NCBI RefSeq assembly: GCF_900106015.1
Contig: NZ_LT629797.1
Coordinates: forward strand, 5,394,001 to 5,458,000
Length of the DNA: 64,000 bases
Reading direction: 5' to 3'
Origin: Pseudomonas sihuiensis
GTDB taxonomy: Bacteria; Pseudomonadota; Gammaproteobacteria; Pseudomonadales; Pseudomonadaceae
Every line of letters starts with the position of its first letter. Positions within the stretch are counted from its first letter, which is position 1. This document shows, piece by piece, positions 47,684-56,839 of the stretch. Position numbers and translations under genes: made by a program. The notes beneath the pieces were generated by a model. It worked only from the letters and a program-made list of their open reading frames with translations, was not told the origin of the DNA and searched no databases.

Positions 47684-48709
47684 TCAGCGACGCCGAAGCT
47701 CCACCTGCAGGGCGTGTTCATCGGTCTGAGTGCAGATGATGGCTACATTCAGGAAGTGCTGGATTACCTGCATGTTGCTGCTCAGATGCTCGCTCATGTG
47801 CGTTGTGCTGAAGCTGCCGCCGCCAGCCATGGCCAGTGGCAGCAGCAACTGATCGGCCAGGTGCTCGGCCACGGCGGCGCCGCTGTGCAGCCATTGCCGC
47901 GCTTGACCCACGGCCCGGTCAGCGACCTGCTCGGCGCGCACGCTGCTTTGGCCGACGCTGCTGAACACCTCGGTAAGGTGCTCGCAGGCGATTTCCAGCA
48001 GCAACACGTTGCCTGGGCCGATCTGCTTGTCCAGCCAGATGCCTTTCAGTGCCTGTTCCGGCCACTTCAGGCGCTTGCCGACACGCGCCAGTTCGCGCTC
48101 GGCCACATGGCCTGGCACGTCCGCCACTATGGCGGTTGCCAGCTGATGGTGAACGGCGCCGGGCGCCTTCAGGTGCAGCGGGCTTAGCACCGACGGTGCG
48201 ACCTGCAGGGCGATTGCGCCGCCACCAGCCGGTGCGAAGCCATGGCGCAGCAGTTCGATCTCCACCTGTGCGCCCATGCGCCGGAGCAGCGGCAGCCAGG
48301 CCCGCTCGAGAAACTCGAAGGGTGGCGCCAGCGGGTTGTGCGTACCGCCGCTGATGTGCACCCGGCTGGGCTGGTCGGCTTGCAGCAGGGCGGGTAGCAG
48401 TGTCTGCATCACCAGGCTGCAGCTACCAGCGGTGCCGATGGCGAAGTCATAGTCGCCGCCCTAGATCGCGCCGGGCGCAAAGCTCAGACTCTGCGAGCCG
48501 AGCTGCGCGCCTTCCACGCGGGCCGAGCTGATCTGCGCGGCCGCTGTTACAGCCGTGAGATGCTGACGTAGCAGGCCGGGGCGGCTGCGCTTGGCGCGGA
48601 TGTTGTGAATGCGAAACGGCTTGCCGGTGATCATCGACAGGCTCAGCGCGCTGCGCAGTATCTGGCCGCCGCCGATGGCGCCGTCCAGCTCGATAAGGTC
48701 CTTGTTCAT
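47684..48709 (-). pseudogene. rtcA: RNA 3'-terminal phosphate cyclase RtcA, interrupted by one amber codon
   Basis: RtcA converts RNA 3'-phosphates to 2',3'-cyclic phosphates using ATP. The 341-codon frame is complete and colinear with E. coli RtcA, including [57 protein letters not shown] and the catalytic-His segment EHLADQLLLPLA. The only fault is TAG at 48461-48463 (codon 83), where relatives read PG-V-R-GGDY and this gene reads PGAI, stop, GGDY. The stop would remove three quarters of the enzyme. It is the last gene of the rtc operon. A sequencing error, a very recent mutation or amber readthrough are all possible. Confidence 0.9.
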
Positions 48710-51569: not shown

Positions 51570-52802
51570 CTATCCTTTCACGCACACCACCTGACGCAGG
51601 GTGTGCACCACTTCCACCAACTCGCGCTGGGCGTCCATTACCTGATCGATGTCCTTGTAGGCCATCGGTATTTCGTCGATCACGTCGGCGTCCTTGCGGC
51701 ATTCCACATGAGCCGTGGCGCGGATCTGATCTTCGATGGTGAAGACCTTCTTCGCCTTGGTTCGGCTCATGGTGCGCCCGGCGCCGTGGCTGCAGGAGCA
51801 GAACGCCTCCTCGTTACCCAGGCCGCGCACGATGTAGCTCTTGGCGCCCATGGAGCCGGGGATGATGCCCAGTTCGCCCTTCTTCGCTGACACCGCGCCT
51901 TTACGGGTTACCAGCACCTCTTCACCGAAGTGACGTTCCTTCTGCACGTAGTTGTGGTGGCAGTTCACTGCCTCCAGGGCCACCTCGAACGGTTTGACGA
52001 TCACGCCGCGTGCCGCCGCGATCACCGCATGCATCATCAGCGCGCGGTTCTGCTTGGCGAAGTCCTGCGCCCAGCCCACAGCTTCCACATAGTCATCGAA
52101 GTGCTGGCTGCCTTCCTCGAAGTAGGCCAGGTCACGATCCGGCAGGTTGGCGATGTGCTGGCGCATATCGGCCTGGGCCAGTTCGATGAACAGGTTGCCG
52201 ATGGCGTTACCCACACCGCGCGAACCGCTGTGCAGCATGAACCAGACGCGGCCTGCTTCATCCAGGCAGACTTCGATGAAATGGTTGCCGGTACCCAGGG
52301 TTCCCAGGTGCTTACGATTGTTGGTTTTCTCCAAACGCGGGTACTTGTCGGTGATCGCCTTGAAGCGCTCGCTCAGCGCCGACCAGGCGTGGTCGGCCAT
52401 CTCCGGCACGTTTTCCCAGGCTCCCCGATCACGACCGGCGCGCGTGTTGCTGCGCCCGTGCGGCACGGCTTTCTCGATGGCGGCGCGCAGCCCGGCCAGG
52501 TTATCCGGGAGGTCGTGCGCCATCAGCGAGGTGCGCGCGGCGATCATGCCGCAACCGATATCCACCCCGACCGCAGCCGGGATGATCGCGCCGACCGTGG
52601 GGATCACGCTGCCGATGGTCGAGCCCTTACCCAGGTGCACGTCCGGCATCACGGCCAGGTGCTTGAAGATGAAGGGCATCTTCGCGGTGTTCATCAACTG
52701 CTGCTTGGCGTCTTCCTCCACCGGAACGCCTTGCGTCCACAGTTTGATTGGCTTGCCGTTTGCGACTTCCAGCAGGTTGTAAGTTTTGCTCTGCATCATC
52801 AT
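51570..52802 (-). CDS. rtcB: RNA-splicing ligase RtcB
   Basis: RtcB joins RNA 2',3'-cyclic phosphate or 3'-phosphate ends to 5'-OH ends using GTP and Mn(II), repairing cleaved tRNA and rRNA. The 410-residue protein has all signatures: PDVHLGKGSTIGSVIPT, the metal motif VGVDIGCGM, GTGNHFIEVCLDEAGR, HSGSRGVGN, CHHNYVQKE, and the guanylated-His motif CSCSHGAGRTMSR, in the correct order. Three ATG codons overlap at the start (52802, 52799 and 52796). It follows the Y RNA array on the same strand, and the whole unit is expected to be under RtcR and sigma-54 control. Confidence 0.96.
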   Translation of the reverse strand: MMMQSKTYNLLEVANGKPIKLWTQGVPVEEDAKQQLMNTAKMPFIFKHLAVMPDVHLGKGSTIGSVIPTVGAIIPAAVGVDIGCGMIAARTSLMAHDLPDNLAGLRAAIEKAVPHGRSNTRAGRDRGAWENVPEMADHAWSALSERFKAITDKYPRLEKTNNRKHLGTLGTGNHFIEVCLDEAGRVWFMLHSGSRGVGNAIGNLFIELAQADMRQHIANLPDRDLAYFEEGSQHFDDYVEAVGWAQDFAKQNRALMMHAVIAAARGVIVKPFEVALEAVNCHHNYVQKERHFGEEVLVTRKGAVSAKKGELGIIPGSMGAKSYIVRGLGNEEAFCSCSHGAGRTMSRTKAKKVFTIEDQIRATAHVECRKDADVIDEIPMAYKDIDQVMDAQRELVEVVHTLRQVVCVKG

Positions 52803-52844
52803 TCACTCGTAATTCGGGCTGGCTGGGCCAGCGTGCTTGCAGTG

Positions 52845-52959
52845 CGGCGACAATCGTTGGTGAAACATGCGCGTCGCTCTATCCTGTTGAGCTACCCGTT
52901 GCCGGGGCGGGATTCGAACCCGCAACCTTCACGTCCTGTAGTTCCACCGGCATTCGCCG
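52845..52959 (-). ncRNA. Y RNA-like unit 5 (full tRNA-mimic)
   Basis: Minus strand, 115 nt. Outer stem CGGCGA / TCGCCG, conserved bulge CGAATGCC opposite TTGTCG, inner stem GGTGGAAC / GTTTCACC (one G-U). Inside are a T-arm (GCGGG TTCGAAT CCCGC), an acceptor-like hairpin CCCG-GCAA-CGGG with a GNRA loop, and a D-arm GCTC-AACAGGATA-GAGC. The order T-arm, acceptor, D-arm is circularly permuted relative to tRNA, as in bacterial Y RNAs of the YrlA type that bind Ro60. Confidence 0.85.
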
Positions 52960-52991
52960 GGTCAATAAAAATGGTGGATGCGGGCCTCCGT

Positions 52992-53097
52992 GCAGCGACG
53001 AGGTGATGGGCACATTTGCTCTACCGACTGAGCTACAGCCTTGCGGCTGACGGGGCTCGAACCCGCGACACAATGTAGTACCCAAGGCATTCGCTGC
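52992..53097 (-). ncRNA. Y RNA-like unit 4 (full tRNA-mimic)
   Basis: Minus strand, 106 nt. Outer stem GCAGCGA / TCGCTGC, inner stem TGGGTAC / GTGCCCA, then T-arm with loop TTCGAGC, acceptor-like CAGCC-GCAA-GGCTG and D-arm GCTC-AGTCGGTA-GAGC. The 5' motif GCGAATGCC and TACATTG keep the family consensus. Confidence 0.85.
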
Positions 53098-53107
53098 CTG
53101 AAAAAGA

Positions 53108-53235
53108 TGCGACGACAACGAGTGGTGAAACTCGCGCTCTCCCATTGAGCTACGGCCCCCCAGTGATGGAGCCGACGGGATTCGAACCCGCAACCTCGAT
53201 CTTAAAAGGATGTAGTTCCACCGGCATTCGTCGCA
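53108..53235 (-). ncRNA. Y RNA-like unit 3 (full tRNA-mimic)
   Basis: Minus strand, 128 nt. Outer stem TGCGACGA / TCGTCGCA (8 bp), bulged motif CGAATGCC opposite CTCGTTG, inner stem GGTGGAAC / GTTTCACC. T-arm GCGGG-TTCGAAT-CCCGT, acceptor-like stem CGGCTCC / GGGGCCG, D-arm GCTC-AATGGGA-GAGC. A T-run (TCTTTTT) follows the closing stem and could end or process the transcript. Confidence 0.85.
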
Positions 53236-53251
53236 AAACCGTGAATCAGGT

Positions 53252-53339
53252 GGCACGACAAGATAAGTGACTGTTCCGTGTTGCCACGGGCCGGTATCGA
53301 AACCGGCATAACCGATGTACAGCCACTGGCATTCGTGCC
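53252..53339 (-). ncRNA. Y RNA-like unit 2 (lacks D-arm)
   Basis: Minus strand, 88 nt. Outer stem GGCACGA / TCGTGCC, bulge CGAATGCC opposite TCTTGTCG, inner stem GTGGCTGT / ACAGTCAC. A T-arm (GCCGG-TTTCGATA-CCGGC) and acceptor-like CCGTG-GCAA-CACGG are present, but no D-arm follows: the acceptor hairpin joins straight to the inner stem. Confidence 0.82.
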
Positions 53340-53345
53340 TTCGCT

Positions 53346-53405
53346 CGTAGTCGACAAGTTCGTGATGAGACGTCTTGGATGTAGTCCCATCAGCATTCGA
53401 ATACG
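53346..53405 (-). ncRNA. Y RNA-like unit 1 (minimal Ro-binding stem-loop)
   Basis: Minus strand, 60 nt. Outer stem CGTATTCGA / TCGACTACG (one mismatch), bulge CGAATGC opposite ACTTGTCG, inner stem GATGGGAC / GTCTCATC, closed by the loop TACATCCAAGAC. No T-arm or D-arm is present. The sequence contains only the part conserved across all five units, that is, the presumed Ro60-binding site. Confidence 0.75.
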
Positions 53406-53423
53406 CTTGAATCGTTGATCTGT

Positions 53424-53449
53424 GCGCCCGGCCCCAGTCGGCCGGGCGC
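53424..53449 (-). terminator. Strong hairpin between rsr and the Y RNA array
   Basis: GCGCCCGGC / GCCGGGCGC (9 bp, perfect, 8-nt loop) lies 4 bp after the rsr stop. It has no T-tract, so it more likely protects or processes the rsr mRNA end than stops transcription, which must reach the Y RNAs and rtcB. Confidence 0.55.
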
Positions 53450-53453
53450 GTTC

Positions 53454-55004
53454 TCATATCTCCATCTGCTCGATGGCGTCGACCCAGTGGCCGGCGCCGA
53501 AGGTACCGCTGGCGAACTGCGCCACCACGTCGAACACCGCGTCGCTGAAGCCGCCGACATTCAGGATATCCGCACGATCCGGCGCCTGGGTGGTGCCATG
53601 GGGTTGCAGGTCGATGCAGATCAGCCGCGCTTGCGGGTTGAACTGCTTGATTCGCTCCCACTGCCGCAGCGTCTCGGTGGCGCCATGGCGGCGGGCGTCG
53701 ATCCAGGATTCGTTGTCGGAAACCAGAATCAGCGTATCCACTTTCGCCTTGGCATCGGCCAACTGCTTCAGCGGGGCGGAGCAACTGGTGCCGCCGCCGC
53801 AGATCGCCGCCAGCCTCGAAGCGTTGCTCATCACGCTGTCACGCGGGTTGAGCGTCATCTTCACCACTTTGTTCTCGAACGGCAGCAACTGGGCCTGCGG
53901 CTGCTTGCGCAGGATCGCTGCGGCCACCAGCGCCGCCACGTCGATGCAGCGCACCGCAGTGGTCGCGCCCTGGCGGTAGCCGGTCACCGGGCTCGCCATC
54001 GAGCCGGATACGTCCGGGCATACCACCACCTGACCGCTCAGCGCCGGTACATTGCTCAGCGACAGCTCCAGAGCATCCTGCAGCGCCTCGCGCACCGTCG
54101 TTGGCACGCCGTCGCCGGTCATGCGGTAGGCCGCCAGCAACTGGTACGGGTAGACCCGCGCCTTGCCGATTGCCTCGCCATCGGCCAGACGCCGCGCCGC
54201 CATTTCGGCACAGCCCTCGACCGCGAATGCGCCATGGCGCACCAGCGTATTGAGGTTCATGCGCAGCGCCTGCCAACCCATGCGTCCGGCCAGTTCGGCC
54301 CATTGCGCCGCGCTCAGCGTCTCGTTGCCGAGCAGTTGGAACGGCACGTCCGGCAACTCGCTGCTCGCGCCGCTGCGAAACGCCAGCAGGGCGTGGGTCA
54401 ACGGCGGCAGGGCAGCAGCATCGGCCGGCTTGCCGATCAACCAGGCGAAGAAGGCTTCACGCCAGGCCTCGCTCGGCTTGGGGTGAACCATCTTCACCAC
54501 GTCGGCCAGCGACGGCTGGTTGCCGACTGCGGCCTGCAGCAGTTGGCGTTCGCTGGCGGTGTTCAGCCAGTTCTGCACCAGACGCTTGGGCTGCGAACCG
54601 AGCGACTTGCGTCCGGTCACGCAGCTACGCAGGATCTGCACGAAGGTGCGCAGCATCTTGCCGTTATCCACTACCTGCTCGAACAAGGCCGGCACCAGGC
54701 TCGAGCGTTGTGCGGCCAGGGCTGCCAGCAGCAGGGCCGGCATGTCCTTCATGTGGCCCTTCTTGCGGGCATAGAGCGCGGCTTTGGCCACATAGCGGGC
54801 GTCCAGCTCGCCGACCAGCTTGAGCACTTCGTCCAACTGGGTTTGCGCATCGGCATAGACGGTCTGGTTCAGGCAACCGGTGACCGCCAGCTGGGCCAGC
54901 TTGTGCTTGGGCTTGTAGGCATAAGCCGGCGCCTGCTGTTTGTTCAGCGTGTCGCTGGCCGGCAGTTGGGCTTGGCGGGTGTTGAACAGGTTGAAGTTGG
55001 CCAT
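53454..55004 (-). CDS. rsr: Ro60 orthologue Rsr (TROVE and vWA domains)
   Basis: Rsr is the bacterial Ro60 ring protein that binds Y RNAs and misfolded or structured RNAs and works with nucleases in RNA quality control. The 516-residue protein has the TROVE HEAT-ring domain (residues about 20-315; ARYVAKAALYARKKGHMKDM and RLVQNWLNTASERQLL) and a von Willebrand A-like domain with MIDAS motif DVSGSM starting at Asp331 and VDTLILVSDNESW. It is the first gene after a sigma-54 promoter, and the downstream non-coding stretch encodes its predicted RNA partners. Confidence 0.93.
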   Translation of the reverse strand: MANFNLFNTRQAQLPASDTLNKQQAPAYAYKPKHKLAQLAVTGCLNQTVYADAQTQLDEVLKLVGELDARYVAKAALYARKKGHMKDMPALLLAALAAQRSSLVPALFEQVVDNGKMLRTFVQILRSCVTGRKSLGSQPKRLVQNWLNTASERQLLQAAVGNQPSLADVVKMVHPKPSEAWREAFFAWLIGKPADAAALPPLTHALLAFRSGASSELPDVPFQLLGNETLSAAQWAELAGRMGWQALRMNLNTLVRHGAFAVEGCAEMAARRLADGEAIGKARVYPYQLLAAYRMTGDGVPTTVREALQDALELSLSNVPALSGQVVVCPDVSGSMASPVTGYRQGATTAVRCIDVAALVAAAILRKQPQAQLLPFENKVVKMTLNPRDSVMSNASRLAAICGGGTSCSAPLKQLADAKAKVDTLILVSDNESWIDARRHGATETLRQWERIKQFNPQARLICIDLQPHGTTQAPDRADILNVGGFSDAVFDVVAQFASGTFGAGHWVDAIEQMEI

Positions 55005-55042: not shown

Positions 55043-55061
55043 ATTGCAGCGGCTGTGCCAG
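55043..55061 (-). promoter_or_regulatory. Sigma-54 promoter of the rsr-Y RNA-rtcB operon
   Basis: On the minus strand CTGGCACAGCCGCTGCAAT has the conserved -24 GG and -12 GC separated by exactly 10 bases. The predicted start lies near 55033, 29 bp upstream of rsr. The sigma-54 activator RtcR is encoded divergently. Confidence 0.85.
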
Positions 55062-55234
55062 GTTTATCTTTCGAGTTCTTATTTTTATTTAAAGTATTGA
55101 TTTAAAAGTATTTTATTTTTGTTCGAGATGATTTTTGCTGGATCTTGAGGTGGTCGGCTTCAGCAGCATGATATCTATATAGATCGTAATTTATCTTTTT
55201 GGATAAGATGCTGGAGGGTCTACGAGGATTGAAC

Positions 55235-56839
55235 ATGATTCGCAAGCGTACCGTCGCCATCGGCTTTATCGGCACCACCCTGGATCGGGTCGGCAAGGGT
55301 GCCAATCGCTGGAACAAATGGCGGCCGAGTATCGGCCTGTGTCAGCAGCCGGATCTGCTGATCGACCGTCTGGAGCTGATCCACGGCTCCGACGCACGTG
55401 ATATCGGCCTTGCCGAGCGCATTCGCGCGGACATCGAGCAGATCTCCCCGGAAACCGAGGTGCGCCTGCAACAAATGCAGTTGCGCAACCCTTGGGATTT
55501 CGAGGAGGTCTATGGCGCGCTGCACGACTTCACCAATGCCTATGTCTTCGATACCGAACACGAGGACTATCTCGTGCATATCACTACCGGTACGCACGTC
55601 GCGCAGATCTGCTGGTTCCTGCTGACCGAGGCGCGCTATCTACCGGCAAGGCTGATACAAACTTCACCCACACGCAGGCGCGCCGAGGTCGATCCGGTCA
55701 CGGGCACCTACACGCTGATCGACCTGGATCTGTCGCGCTATGACCGCATCGCCTCGCGCTTTCAGAACACACGCCTGGAGGGGCTGGCCTTCCTCAAGTC
55801 GGGCATCGCCACGCGCAATGCCGCCTTCAACCGCTCCATCGAGCAGATCGAGCGAGTCGCCGTGCGCTCCTCGGCGCCCATGCTGCTGATCGGCCCGACC
55901 GGCGCGGGTAAGTCGTTTCTGGCGCGGCGGGTGTACGAGCTCAAGCGCAGCCGCCATCTGGTCGATGGTCGCTTCGTCGAGGTCAACTGCGCCACCTTGC
56001 GCGGCGATGGCGCGATGTCGGCGCTGTTCGGCCATATCAAGGGCGCTTTCACTGGCGCGCAGAACGCTCGTGATGGCCTGCTGCGCGCTGCCGATGGTGG
56101 CATGTTGTTCCTCGACGAGATTGGTGAGCTGGGCCTGGACGAGCAGGCCATGCTGCTCAAGGCTGTCGAGGAGAAACGCTTCTTTCCCATGGGCTCAGAC
56201 AAGGAGGTGAGCAGCGACTTCCTGCTGATCGCCGGCACCCACCGCGACTTGCGCGCGCGGGTGGCTGAAGGTCTGTTTCGCGAAGACCTTTACGCGCGGA
56301 TCAACCTTTGGACCTTCGATTTGCCAGGCCTTGCCGGGCGCCGCGAGGATATCGAGCCGAACATCGATTTCGAGCTGCAGCGCCATGCCCGCGAGCAGGG
56401 ACGGCTGGTGCGTTTCAATCTGGAGGCGCGGCGGCGCTATCTGGCCTTCGCCAGCTCCAGCGAGGCCGCTTGGCAGGGCAACTTCCGTGAGCTGTCGGCC
56501 TCGATCACGCGCATGGCGACCCTGGCCGACAGCGGGCGTATCGATGAAGAGCAGGTGCGTGAGGAGATCGAGCGCCTGCGCAGAGCCTGGGGCCAGGTGG
56601 AGCAGGACGATGGGCTGAAGGCCTGGCTGGGCGAGGCGGCGGACGAGCTGGATCTGTTCGACCGCCTGCAGTTACGGGCGGTGCTCGAGGTCTGTCGTCA
56701 GGCCGATAGTTTGTCCGATGCCGGGCGCCGGCTGTACCAGGTGTCGCGCCTGAGCAAGGCGCAGCCCAACGATGCCGACCGGCTGCGCAAGTACCTGGCG
56801 CGTTTCGGCCTGGAGTGGAAGGATCTGCTCGGTAACTGA
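55235..56839 (+). CDS. rtcR: RtcR, CARF-domain sigma-54 activator of the RNA-repair operon
   Basis: RtcR has an N-terminal CARF-like ligand domain, which in Salmonella binds 5' tRNA fragments ending in cyclic phosphate, a central AAA+ domain and a DNA-binding end. The 534-residue protein is colinear with E. coli RtcR: TVAIGFIGTTLDRVGKGANR, NPWDFEEVYGALHDF and EDYLVHITTGTHVAQICWFL in the CARF part, Walker A GPTGAGKS (220-227), the sigma-54 contact GAFTGA (270-275), and a C-terminal helix-turn-helix. The start at 55235 follows GAGGATTGAAC and matches the usual N-terminus; 55199 is rejected. It is divergent from rsr. Confidence 0.95.
   Translation: MIRKRTVAIGFIGTTLDRVGKGANRWNKWRPSIGLCQQPDLLIDRLELIHGSDARDIGLAERIRADIEQISPETEVRLQQMQLRNPWDFEEVYGALHDFTNAYVFDTEHEDYLVHITTGTHVAQICWFLLTEARYLPARLIQTSPTRRRAEVDPVTGTYTLIDLDLSRYDRIASRFQNTRLEGLAFLKSGIATRNAAFNRSIEQIERVAVRSSAPMLLIGPTGAGKSFLARRVYELKRSRHLVDGRFVEVNCATLRGDGAMSALFGHIKGAFTGAQNARDGLLRAADGGMLFLDEIGELGLDEQAMLLKAVEEKRFFPMGSDKEVSSDFLLIAGTHRDLRARVAEGLFREDLYARINLWTFDLPGLAGRREDIEPNIDFELQRHAREQGRLVRFNLEARRRYLAFASSSEAAWQGNFRELSASITRMATLADSGRIDEEQVREEIERLRRAWGQVEQDDGLKAWLGEAADELDLFDRLQLRAVLEVCRQADSLSDAGRRLYQVSRLSKAQPNDADRLRKYLARFGLEWKDLLGN

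What the first reader, a model, noticed from the sequence alone, without database searches (positions are those of the whole stretch)
52845..53405. Tandem array of five Y RNA-like genes between rsr and rtcB
Seen in sequence: five repeats on the minus strand share CGAATGC, TGG and TACA elements, and each sits inside a self-complementary stem whose outer pairs differ in sequence but conserve pairing (for example GGCACGA/TCGTGCC, TGCGACGA/TCGTCGCA, GCAGCGA/TCGCTGC, CGGCGA/TCGCCG). This covariation is strong evidence for selected RNA structure. Established knowledge: bacterial Y RNAs lie next to the Ro60 orthologue and mimic tRNA. Inference: this is an expanded Y RNA family feeding Rsr and perhaps the RNA-repair enzymes. 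Annotation pipelines would leave this as blank DNA or broken tRNAs.
Basis: partly seen in the sequence, partly recalled or inferred. Interest (0 to 1): 0.95.

Follow-up and report, generated by a model that had tools for sequence, protein, structure and literature searches.

The report
Five-gene Y RNA array in Pseudomonas
Between the genes for a Ro60-like protein and an RNA ligase, this Pseudomonas genome carries five different small-RNA genes, with stems kept by matched mutations across species in the three gene types tested; they are predicted to be Y RNAs that would bind the Ro60-like protein, three with a tRNA-like head and two with a reduced head or none.

Summary
Minus strand 53406-52841, between rsr and rtcB of an RtcR-type RNA-repair operon, holds five Y RNA-like units. 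Rfam YrlA passes its gathering score for two (88.1, 69.3 bits), falls just short for a third (64.9), and gives 27 bits for U2 and nothing for U1. U1 and U2 are nevertheless real structure classes: across Pseudomonas, compensatory changes exceed every one of 500 shuffles. U1 is a bare stem (~60 nt). U2 has a T-arm-like and an acceptor-like hairpin but no D-arm. U3-U5 are full YrlA tRNA mimics. Across 80 rsr loci a heuristic count gives 312 units, 1-11 per locus. Three Pseudomonas genomes keep rsr and the two short units but have no YrlA match. Ten relatives and a Rhizobium plasmid carry a second mimic topology: a cloverleaf opened at the D-loop instead of the anticodon. The kind is known (bacterial Y RNAs; Salmonella rsr-yrlBA-rtcBA). 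New as far as I could check: two uncatalogued short classes, the graded array and the second topology. Expression, binding to Rsr and function are inferred.

The parts
53346..53406 (-). U1: bare Y stem, no tRNA-like module
   Evidence: covariation in A1; R1 match 75 bits, but L004 in the training set has the same score and place; no YrlA match, YrlB 15.4 bits
53252..53339 (-). U2: Y stem with T-arm-like hairpin (loop of 6 in the predicted fold) and acceptor-like hairpin closed by GCAA, no D-arm
   Evidence: covariation in A2; R2 match 104.2 bits (L004 in training set); YrlA 27 bits; fold z -4.6
53106..53234 (-). U3: full YrlA-type unit (T-arm, acceptor-like stem, D-arm)
   Evidence: YrlA 64.9 bits, just below the gathering score of 69
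52989..53097 (-). U4: full YrlA-type unit; D-arm region identical to own tRNA-Asn over 23 nt
   Evidence: YrlA 69.3 bits
52841..52960 (-). U5: full YrlA-type unit
   Evidence: YrlA 88.1 bits; covariation in A7
53454..55004 (-). rsr, Ro60 orthologue (divergent)
   Evidence: vWA_Ro60 76.9 bits, TROVE 29.6 bits; NCBIfam Rsr 91 bits, below its cut-off of 900; D. radiodurans Rsr 2nvo E 3.7e-24
51570..52802 (-). rtcB, RNA ligase
   Evidence: PF01139 441 bits
50212..51702 (-). HEAT-repeat ORF (true start probably after rtcB)
   Evidence: PF13646 36.1 bits
48782..49663 (-). RlaP, RNA-repair pathway polymerase-beta family
   Evidence: PF10127 318.7 bits
47684..48709 (-). rtcA, RNA cyclase, with an in-frame stop
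   Evidence: PF01137 123.1 bits on the downstream piece; three-frame translation
55199..56839 (+). rtcR, sigma-54 activator
   Evidence: NF038308 849.6 bits, cut-off 650
55045..55060 (-). sigma-54-like promoter element TGGCACAGCCGCTGCA before rsr
   Evidence: weak alone (0.38 expected in the window, 33 of 100 shuffles have one)

Best explanation
The stretch between rsr and rtcB encodes five Y RNA-like small RNAs of graded complexity, one bare stem, one with a partial tRNA-like head and three full YrlA-type tRNA mimics, which are predicted to be transcribed with rsr and rtcB from an RtcR/sigma-54 promoter and to bind Rsr. Inferred mechanism: the shared stem (GA-AUGC ... UUG-UC) would be the Rsr handle in all five, and the head would choose the partner. 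Full heads would tether Rsr to PNPase or to tRNA-handling proteins, as reported for the Deinococcus and Salmonella RNAs. The bare stem, and perhaps U2, would occupy Rsr without a tether, as gates. RtcR, which in Salmonella binds tRNA fragments, would switch on this set of Rsr particles together with the ligase. Shown here: the units, covariation of three unit types, conserved place and order. Not shown: transcription, processing, binding, function.
For: YrlA matches for U3-U5; covariation in U1, U2 and U5 types, 0 of 500 shuffles for cells changed on both sides; operon rsr, array, rtcB, RlaP, rtcA with divergent rtcR; downstream rtcB in 77 of 80 rsr loci; the R1 matches at E <= 2e-4 (146) lie downstream of rsr and before rtcB where rtcB is held (window match by eye); U1-type first unit in 41 of 42 Pseudomonas loci; sigma-54-like element. 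Roles of stem and head in related RNAs from passages of PMC8394870, PMC4726728 and PMC7790460.
Against: No expression or binding data. The Rsr is divergent (91 bits against a cut-off of 900 in NCBIfam). Folding of U4 and U5 alone is not better than shuffles (z -1.3, -0.6). The sigma-54 element is short and could be chance. The U1 class is not universal: on the Rhizobium plasmid R1 finds no strong match, and 15 of 80 loci have a longer first unit.
Confidence: 0.75

Rival explanations
1. The array is mainly a set of uncleavable tRNA decoys: full units would compete with tRNAs for the anticodon nuclease whose damage induces the operon, and Rsr only stabilises them.
For: Full units lack an anticodon loop; the D-loop-opened units in relatives have a 3-5 nt loop in its place; PMC7790460 proposes competitive inhibition of the nuclease by YrlA and did not detect YrlA fragments; intact tRNA genes lie in two arrays.
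Against: U1 has no tRNA-like part, and three Pseudomonas genomes keep only the short units.
Confidence: 0.25
2. U1 and U2 are not Y RNAs but processing or termination hairpins of the rsr-rtcB transcript.
For: They lie directly after rsr; T-runs are commoner beside units than at random places in the gap (60 of 312 after and 52 of 312 before, against 15 of 312).
Against: They share the stem and bulge letters of the YrlA units; the terminator scan finds none; T-runs are about as common before units as after.
Confidence: 0.07
3. U1 and U2 are decaying remnants of full YrlA genes.
For: Unit number varies 1-11; in L013 and L028 the 5' part of a third unit remains without its head (read by eye).
Against: Compensatory changes in U1 and U2 across species; the short units outlast the full ones in three Pseudomonas genomes.
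Confidence: 0.05

Closest known systems
YrlA (Rfam RF02553), bacterial Y RNA with tRNA-like domain
   Same: U4 and U5 pass the family's score, U3 nearly: same stem, T-arm, acceptor-like stem, D-arm
   Different: U1 and U2 lack the D-arm, U1 every tRNA-like part; three paralogues stand in one array
YrlB (Rfam RF02565), the second Y RNA of Salmonella
   Same: Short Y-like RNA in the same kind of operon (rsr-yrlBA-rtcBA)
   Different: U1 and U2 score 15.4 and 15.8 bits against a gathering score of 97; YrlB itself passes in 0 of 394 genomes drawn from the order of Budvicia
Ro60/Y RNA/PNPase particle (RYPER) of Deinococcus radiodurans
   Same: Ro60 orthologue with Y RNAs; the model for tether and gate (passages)
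   Different: PNPase partnership not tested here; the Rsr is divergent
Salmonella rsr-yrlBA-rtcBA RNA-repair operon
   Same: rtcR, rsr, Y RNAs, rtcB, rtcA (passages)
   Different: Five Y units instead of two; RlaP and a HEAT-repeat ORF are added

Membership tests
YrlA (RF02553) | Score at or above the gathering score of 69 bits | tested here: inconclusive
   Met by U5 (88.1) and U4 (69.3); U3 64.9, U2 27, U1 no match
YrlA (RF02553) | tRNA-like domain with T-arm, acceptor-like stem and D-arm | tested here: inconclusive
   Met by U3-U5 (alignments); not met by U1 and U2
YrlB (RF02565) | Score at or above the gathering score of 97 bits | tested here: not met
   15.4 and 15.8 bits
Bacterial Y RNA (general) | Gene next to a Ro60 orthologue | tested here: met
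   rsr directly upstream
Bacterial Y RNA (general) | Base-paired ends forming a bulged stem | tested here: met
   Covariation for U1, U2 and U5 types; U3 and U4 by YrlA alignment
Bacterial Y RNA (general) | Binds the Ro60 orthologue in cells | not testable with these tools
   Needs an Rsr pull-down
tRNA gene | Cloverleaf with anticodon in tRNA order | tested here: not met
   ARAGORN finds none in the array; the Rfam tRNA hit 53042-53159 joins parts of U3 and U4

The most novel reading that the evidence does not exclude
The bare Ro60-binding stem, not the tRNA mimic, is the core of this RNA family in Pseudomonas, and tRNA-like heads are exchangeable cassettes plugged onto it. They come as nothing, T-arm, T-arm plus acceptor, a cloverleaf opened at the anticodon, or (in relatives) a cloverleaf opened at the D-loop with a blank anticodon arm. 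One operon would thus make a panel of Rsr particles, each aimed at a different tRNA-handling protein, when tRNAs are being cut.
Probability: 0.3. Interest if true: 0.75.

Novelty: new variant of a known kind. Interest (0 to 1): 0.55.

Why it matters
Bacterial Y RNAs are described mainly through their tRNA-like domain. Here the first two RNAs of the Pseudomonas arrays are short ones that Rfam does not catch, and some genomes keep only those beside a full-length rsr. That is a natural test of what a Y RNA does without its tRNA mimic: gate or tether. Models built from the short units find candidates in other genera that default thresholds miss. Arrays of up to 11 units and the D-loop-opened cloverleaf widen the range of tRNA mimicry, as far as I could check.

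Tried and rejected
YrlB as the name for U1/U2: rejected on score. tRNA capture: U4 shares 23 nt with tRNA-Asn and 21 with tRNA-Thr, U5 16 and U3 14 with tRNA-Arg (39 distinct tRNAs); D- and T-arms are alike among tRNAs and no null was run, so no claim. Intrinsic terminators: the scan finds none; T-runs are about as frequent before units (52 of 312) as after (60 of 312). One alignment of full units of all slots (A6) mixes registers and was not used for counts; A8 (U4 type) was aligned but not counted. Phage records: no DNA match. Genus-wide frequency of the U1 class: not answered by the server. Primary Y RNA papers (Chen 2014, Sim and Wolin 2018, Wolin 2013, Wang 2018) are not held; what I say of them is recalled.

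Full report
Place. The window's rsr product is 100% identical in the best segment to that of Pseudomonas chengduensis DSM 26382 (L004). On the minus strand follow rsr 55004-53454, the array, rtcB 52802-51570, a HEAT-repeat ORF, RlaP and rtcA; rtcR is divergent. A sigma-54-like element, TGGCACAGCCGCTGCA, lies at 55060-55045 before rsr; it is weak evidence alone (0.38 expected in the window, 33 of 100 shuffles have one). The simple scan finds no sigma-70-like promoter and no terminator in 52700-53500.

The five units. At gathering scores Rfam finds YrlA at 52841-52960 (88.1 bits) and 52989-53097 (69.3), and a tRNA hit at 53042-53159 that spans two units. At a loose threshold come a third YrlA at 53106-53234 (64.9) and a weak one at 53249-53339 (27); 53346-53405 gets only YrlB at 15.4 bits. 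ARAGORN finds no tRNA in the array. The genome's 3 YrlA matches at E <= 0.001 are U3-U5.

The two short units. I fetched 80 rsr loci: 126 stretches matched a pattern, 95 encode a relative, the best 80 were kept. rtcB was found downstream in 77 of 80 (not in L044, L046, L047); the gap is 237 to 2975 bases. Of 42 Pseudomonas loci 41 gave U1 (31 distinct) and 40 gave U2 by pattern (35 distinct). L007 has a longer first unit with a T-arm; the U2 of L022 and L070 lacks the hairpins and was left out of A2. U1: 94.6% of cells paired, 8 of 16 pairs and 69 cells changed on both sides; 0 of 500 shuffles reach the cell count, and slid controls reach at most 20. U2: 98.7% paired, 5 of 24 pairs and 37 cells; 0 of 500, slid controls at most 3. 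U5-type units (20 sequences): 9 of 34 pairs and 45 cells; 0 of 500, slid controls at most 9; the changes are in the stem at the place of a tRNA anticodon stem and in the acceptor-like stem. Weaker measures: pairs with a double change are reached by 30, 16 and 14 of 500 shuffles; further pair types by 29, 500 and 22 of 500. Single-sequence folding is mixed: z -2.3, -4.6, -2.9, -1.3, -0.6 for U1 to U5.

Specificity. Models R1 (from A1) and R2 (from A2) were searched over the window and 80 loci, 1,085,736 bases. Sequences in the alignments match by construction, and L004, which is in both, has the window's scores. The 146 R1 matches at E <= 2e-4 lie between rsr and rtcB, or, for L044, L046 and L047, within 1.5 kb after rsr (the window's own match was left out by the script and checked by eye). 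Of the 161 at E <= 1, one lies elsewhere by inspection (L083, E 0.14). Of the R2 matches, the script left out minus-strand ones and three partial ones under 47 nt; one of the rest lies outside (L080, E 0.37). The union of a stem finder, R1 and R2 gives 312 units in 80 loci, 1-11 per locus, median spacer 17 nt; the first unit is 75 nt or shorter in 65 of 80. These are heuristic counts: L050 has one unit in my count where YrlA has two matches in the genome. The script's labels of head types miss some T-arms, so I quote no totals by type.

Short units without a full mimic. In Pseudomonas sp. Irchel s3h14, P. pharyngis and P. sputi (L011, L013, L028) the genome has no YrlA match at E <= 0.001 (strict filters, ordinary filters) and the locus none at E <= 0.5, while the rsr match covers residues 1-516, 1-514 and 1-514. 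In three Janthinobacterium and two Duganella genomes no match passes the cut-off. By score alone 42 of the 80 genomes have no match over the cut-off (22 of 42 and 16 of 38 have one), but most of those have weaker matches, some of them tandem tRNAs, so I claim the absence only for the three Pseudomonas genomes. The recalled statement of Chen 2014 (not held) that each species has at least one tRNA-like Y RNA would need an exception.

Cassette exchange. Acceptor-like hairpins of the kinds CCCG-GCAA-CGGG and CAGCC-(GCAA or GTCA)-GGCTG occur in either of two slots; L004 and L010 have them in opposite slots.

A second topology. A pattern scan of the 80 loci and the plasmid locus L134 gave 14 rows. 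I dropped L004 and L005 (the match spans two units) and one L075 row (a tRNA-Gln gene), leaving 11: L045, L049, L052, L058, L071, L073, L075, L079, L080, L082, L134. Their order is GAGC, a hairpin in place of the anticodon arm with a loop of 3-5 nt, a linker, T-arm, an acceptor-like hairpin, GCTC (GCTT in L075): a cloverleaf opened at the D-loop. Whole-unit minimum-energy folds show the D-stem around three hairpins in 6 of 11 (L045, L052, L073, L075, L079, L082, my reading); folds of the core alone in 7 of the 10 printed. There are ten distinct anticodon-arm hairpins and eleven distinct acceptor-like hairpins, but the script chose the best hairpin in each, so this is weaker than a column test; in two sequences the T-arm has a mismatch or wobble. 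Rfam YrlA gives 29.3-34.9 bits to the five I scanned. None is in the window.

Spread. 50 plasmid records match the array in DNA, 41 of them Rhizobium; the ten listed cover U3 and most of U4 at 73-75% identity with no feature annotated. In the one opened, rtcR, an RNA-binding protein and an RtcB-family gene flank a gap of 795 bases without a listed gene, with YrlA at 94.9, 61.7 and 24.7 bits. R1 finds nothing strong there: its best match (E 0.0068) lies outside the gap, and the one inside has E 0.025. No phage record matched.

Literature. The searches listed no paper whose title, abstract start or passages that I saw describe Y RNA arrays in Pseudomonas, the short classes or the D-loop topology; the key primary papers are not held, so absence from print is not shown. 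[quoted passage not shown] YrlA has a basal stem for Rsr and a tRNA-like domain said to bind PNPase (PMC8394870); Y RNAs regulate access to Rsr and tether PNPase in Deinococcus (PMC4726728). PMC4987338 and PMC12282133 were also seen in passages.

Verdict. A confirmed Y RNA array of a known kind in a known kind of operon, with two uncatalogued short classes; its function is inferred.

Noticed in passing
L045, L049, L052, L058, L071, L073, L075, L079, L080, L082, L134 (coordinates): Y RNA units whose tRNA-like head is a cloverleaf opened at the D-loop, with a short-looped hairpin in place of the anticodon arm.
   Followed up: partly
L080:7973-8048 and L075:8153-8228: Ordinary tRNA genes (tRNA-Asn GTT, tRNA-Gln TTG) lie between rsr and the RtcB-like gene, among Y RNA units, in two Rhodobacteraceae.
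   Followed up: partly
window 48461-48463, minus strand: rtcA has an in-frame stop at about residue 83; the near-identical P. chengduensis copy (L004) reads through there. It could be a sequencing error.
   Followed up: partly
L079:7548-10523: The Andreprevotia lacus array has 11 units by my count in a gap of 2975 bases.
   Followed up: partly
L022 and L070: The U1-U2 pair is duplicated as a block and U2 has lost both hairpins.
   Followed up: no
L039, L048 and L079, near rtcB: By eye, a short ORF with cysteine pairs (zinc-ribbon-like; label recalled, no search) near rtcB.
   Followed up: no
Rhizobium plasmid NZ_CP020951.1 (L134): The same rtcR, rsr-like, array, rtcB arrangement on a 560-kb plasmid, with no gene listed in the gap.
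   Followed up: partly
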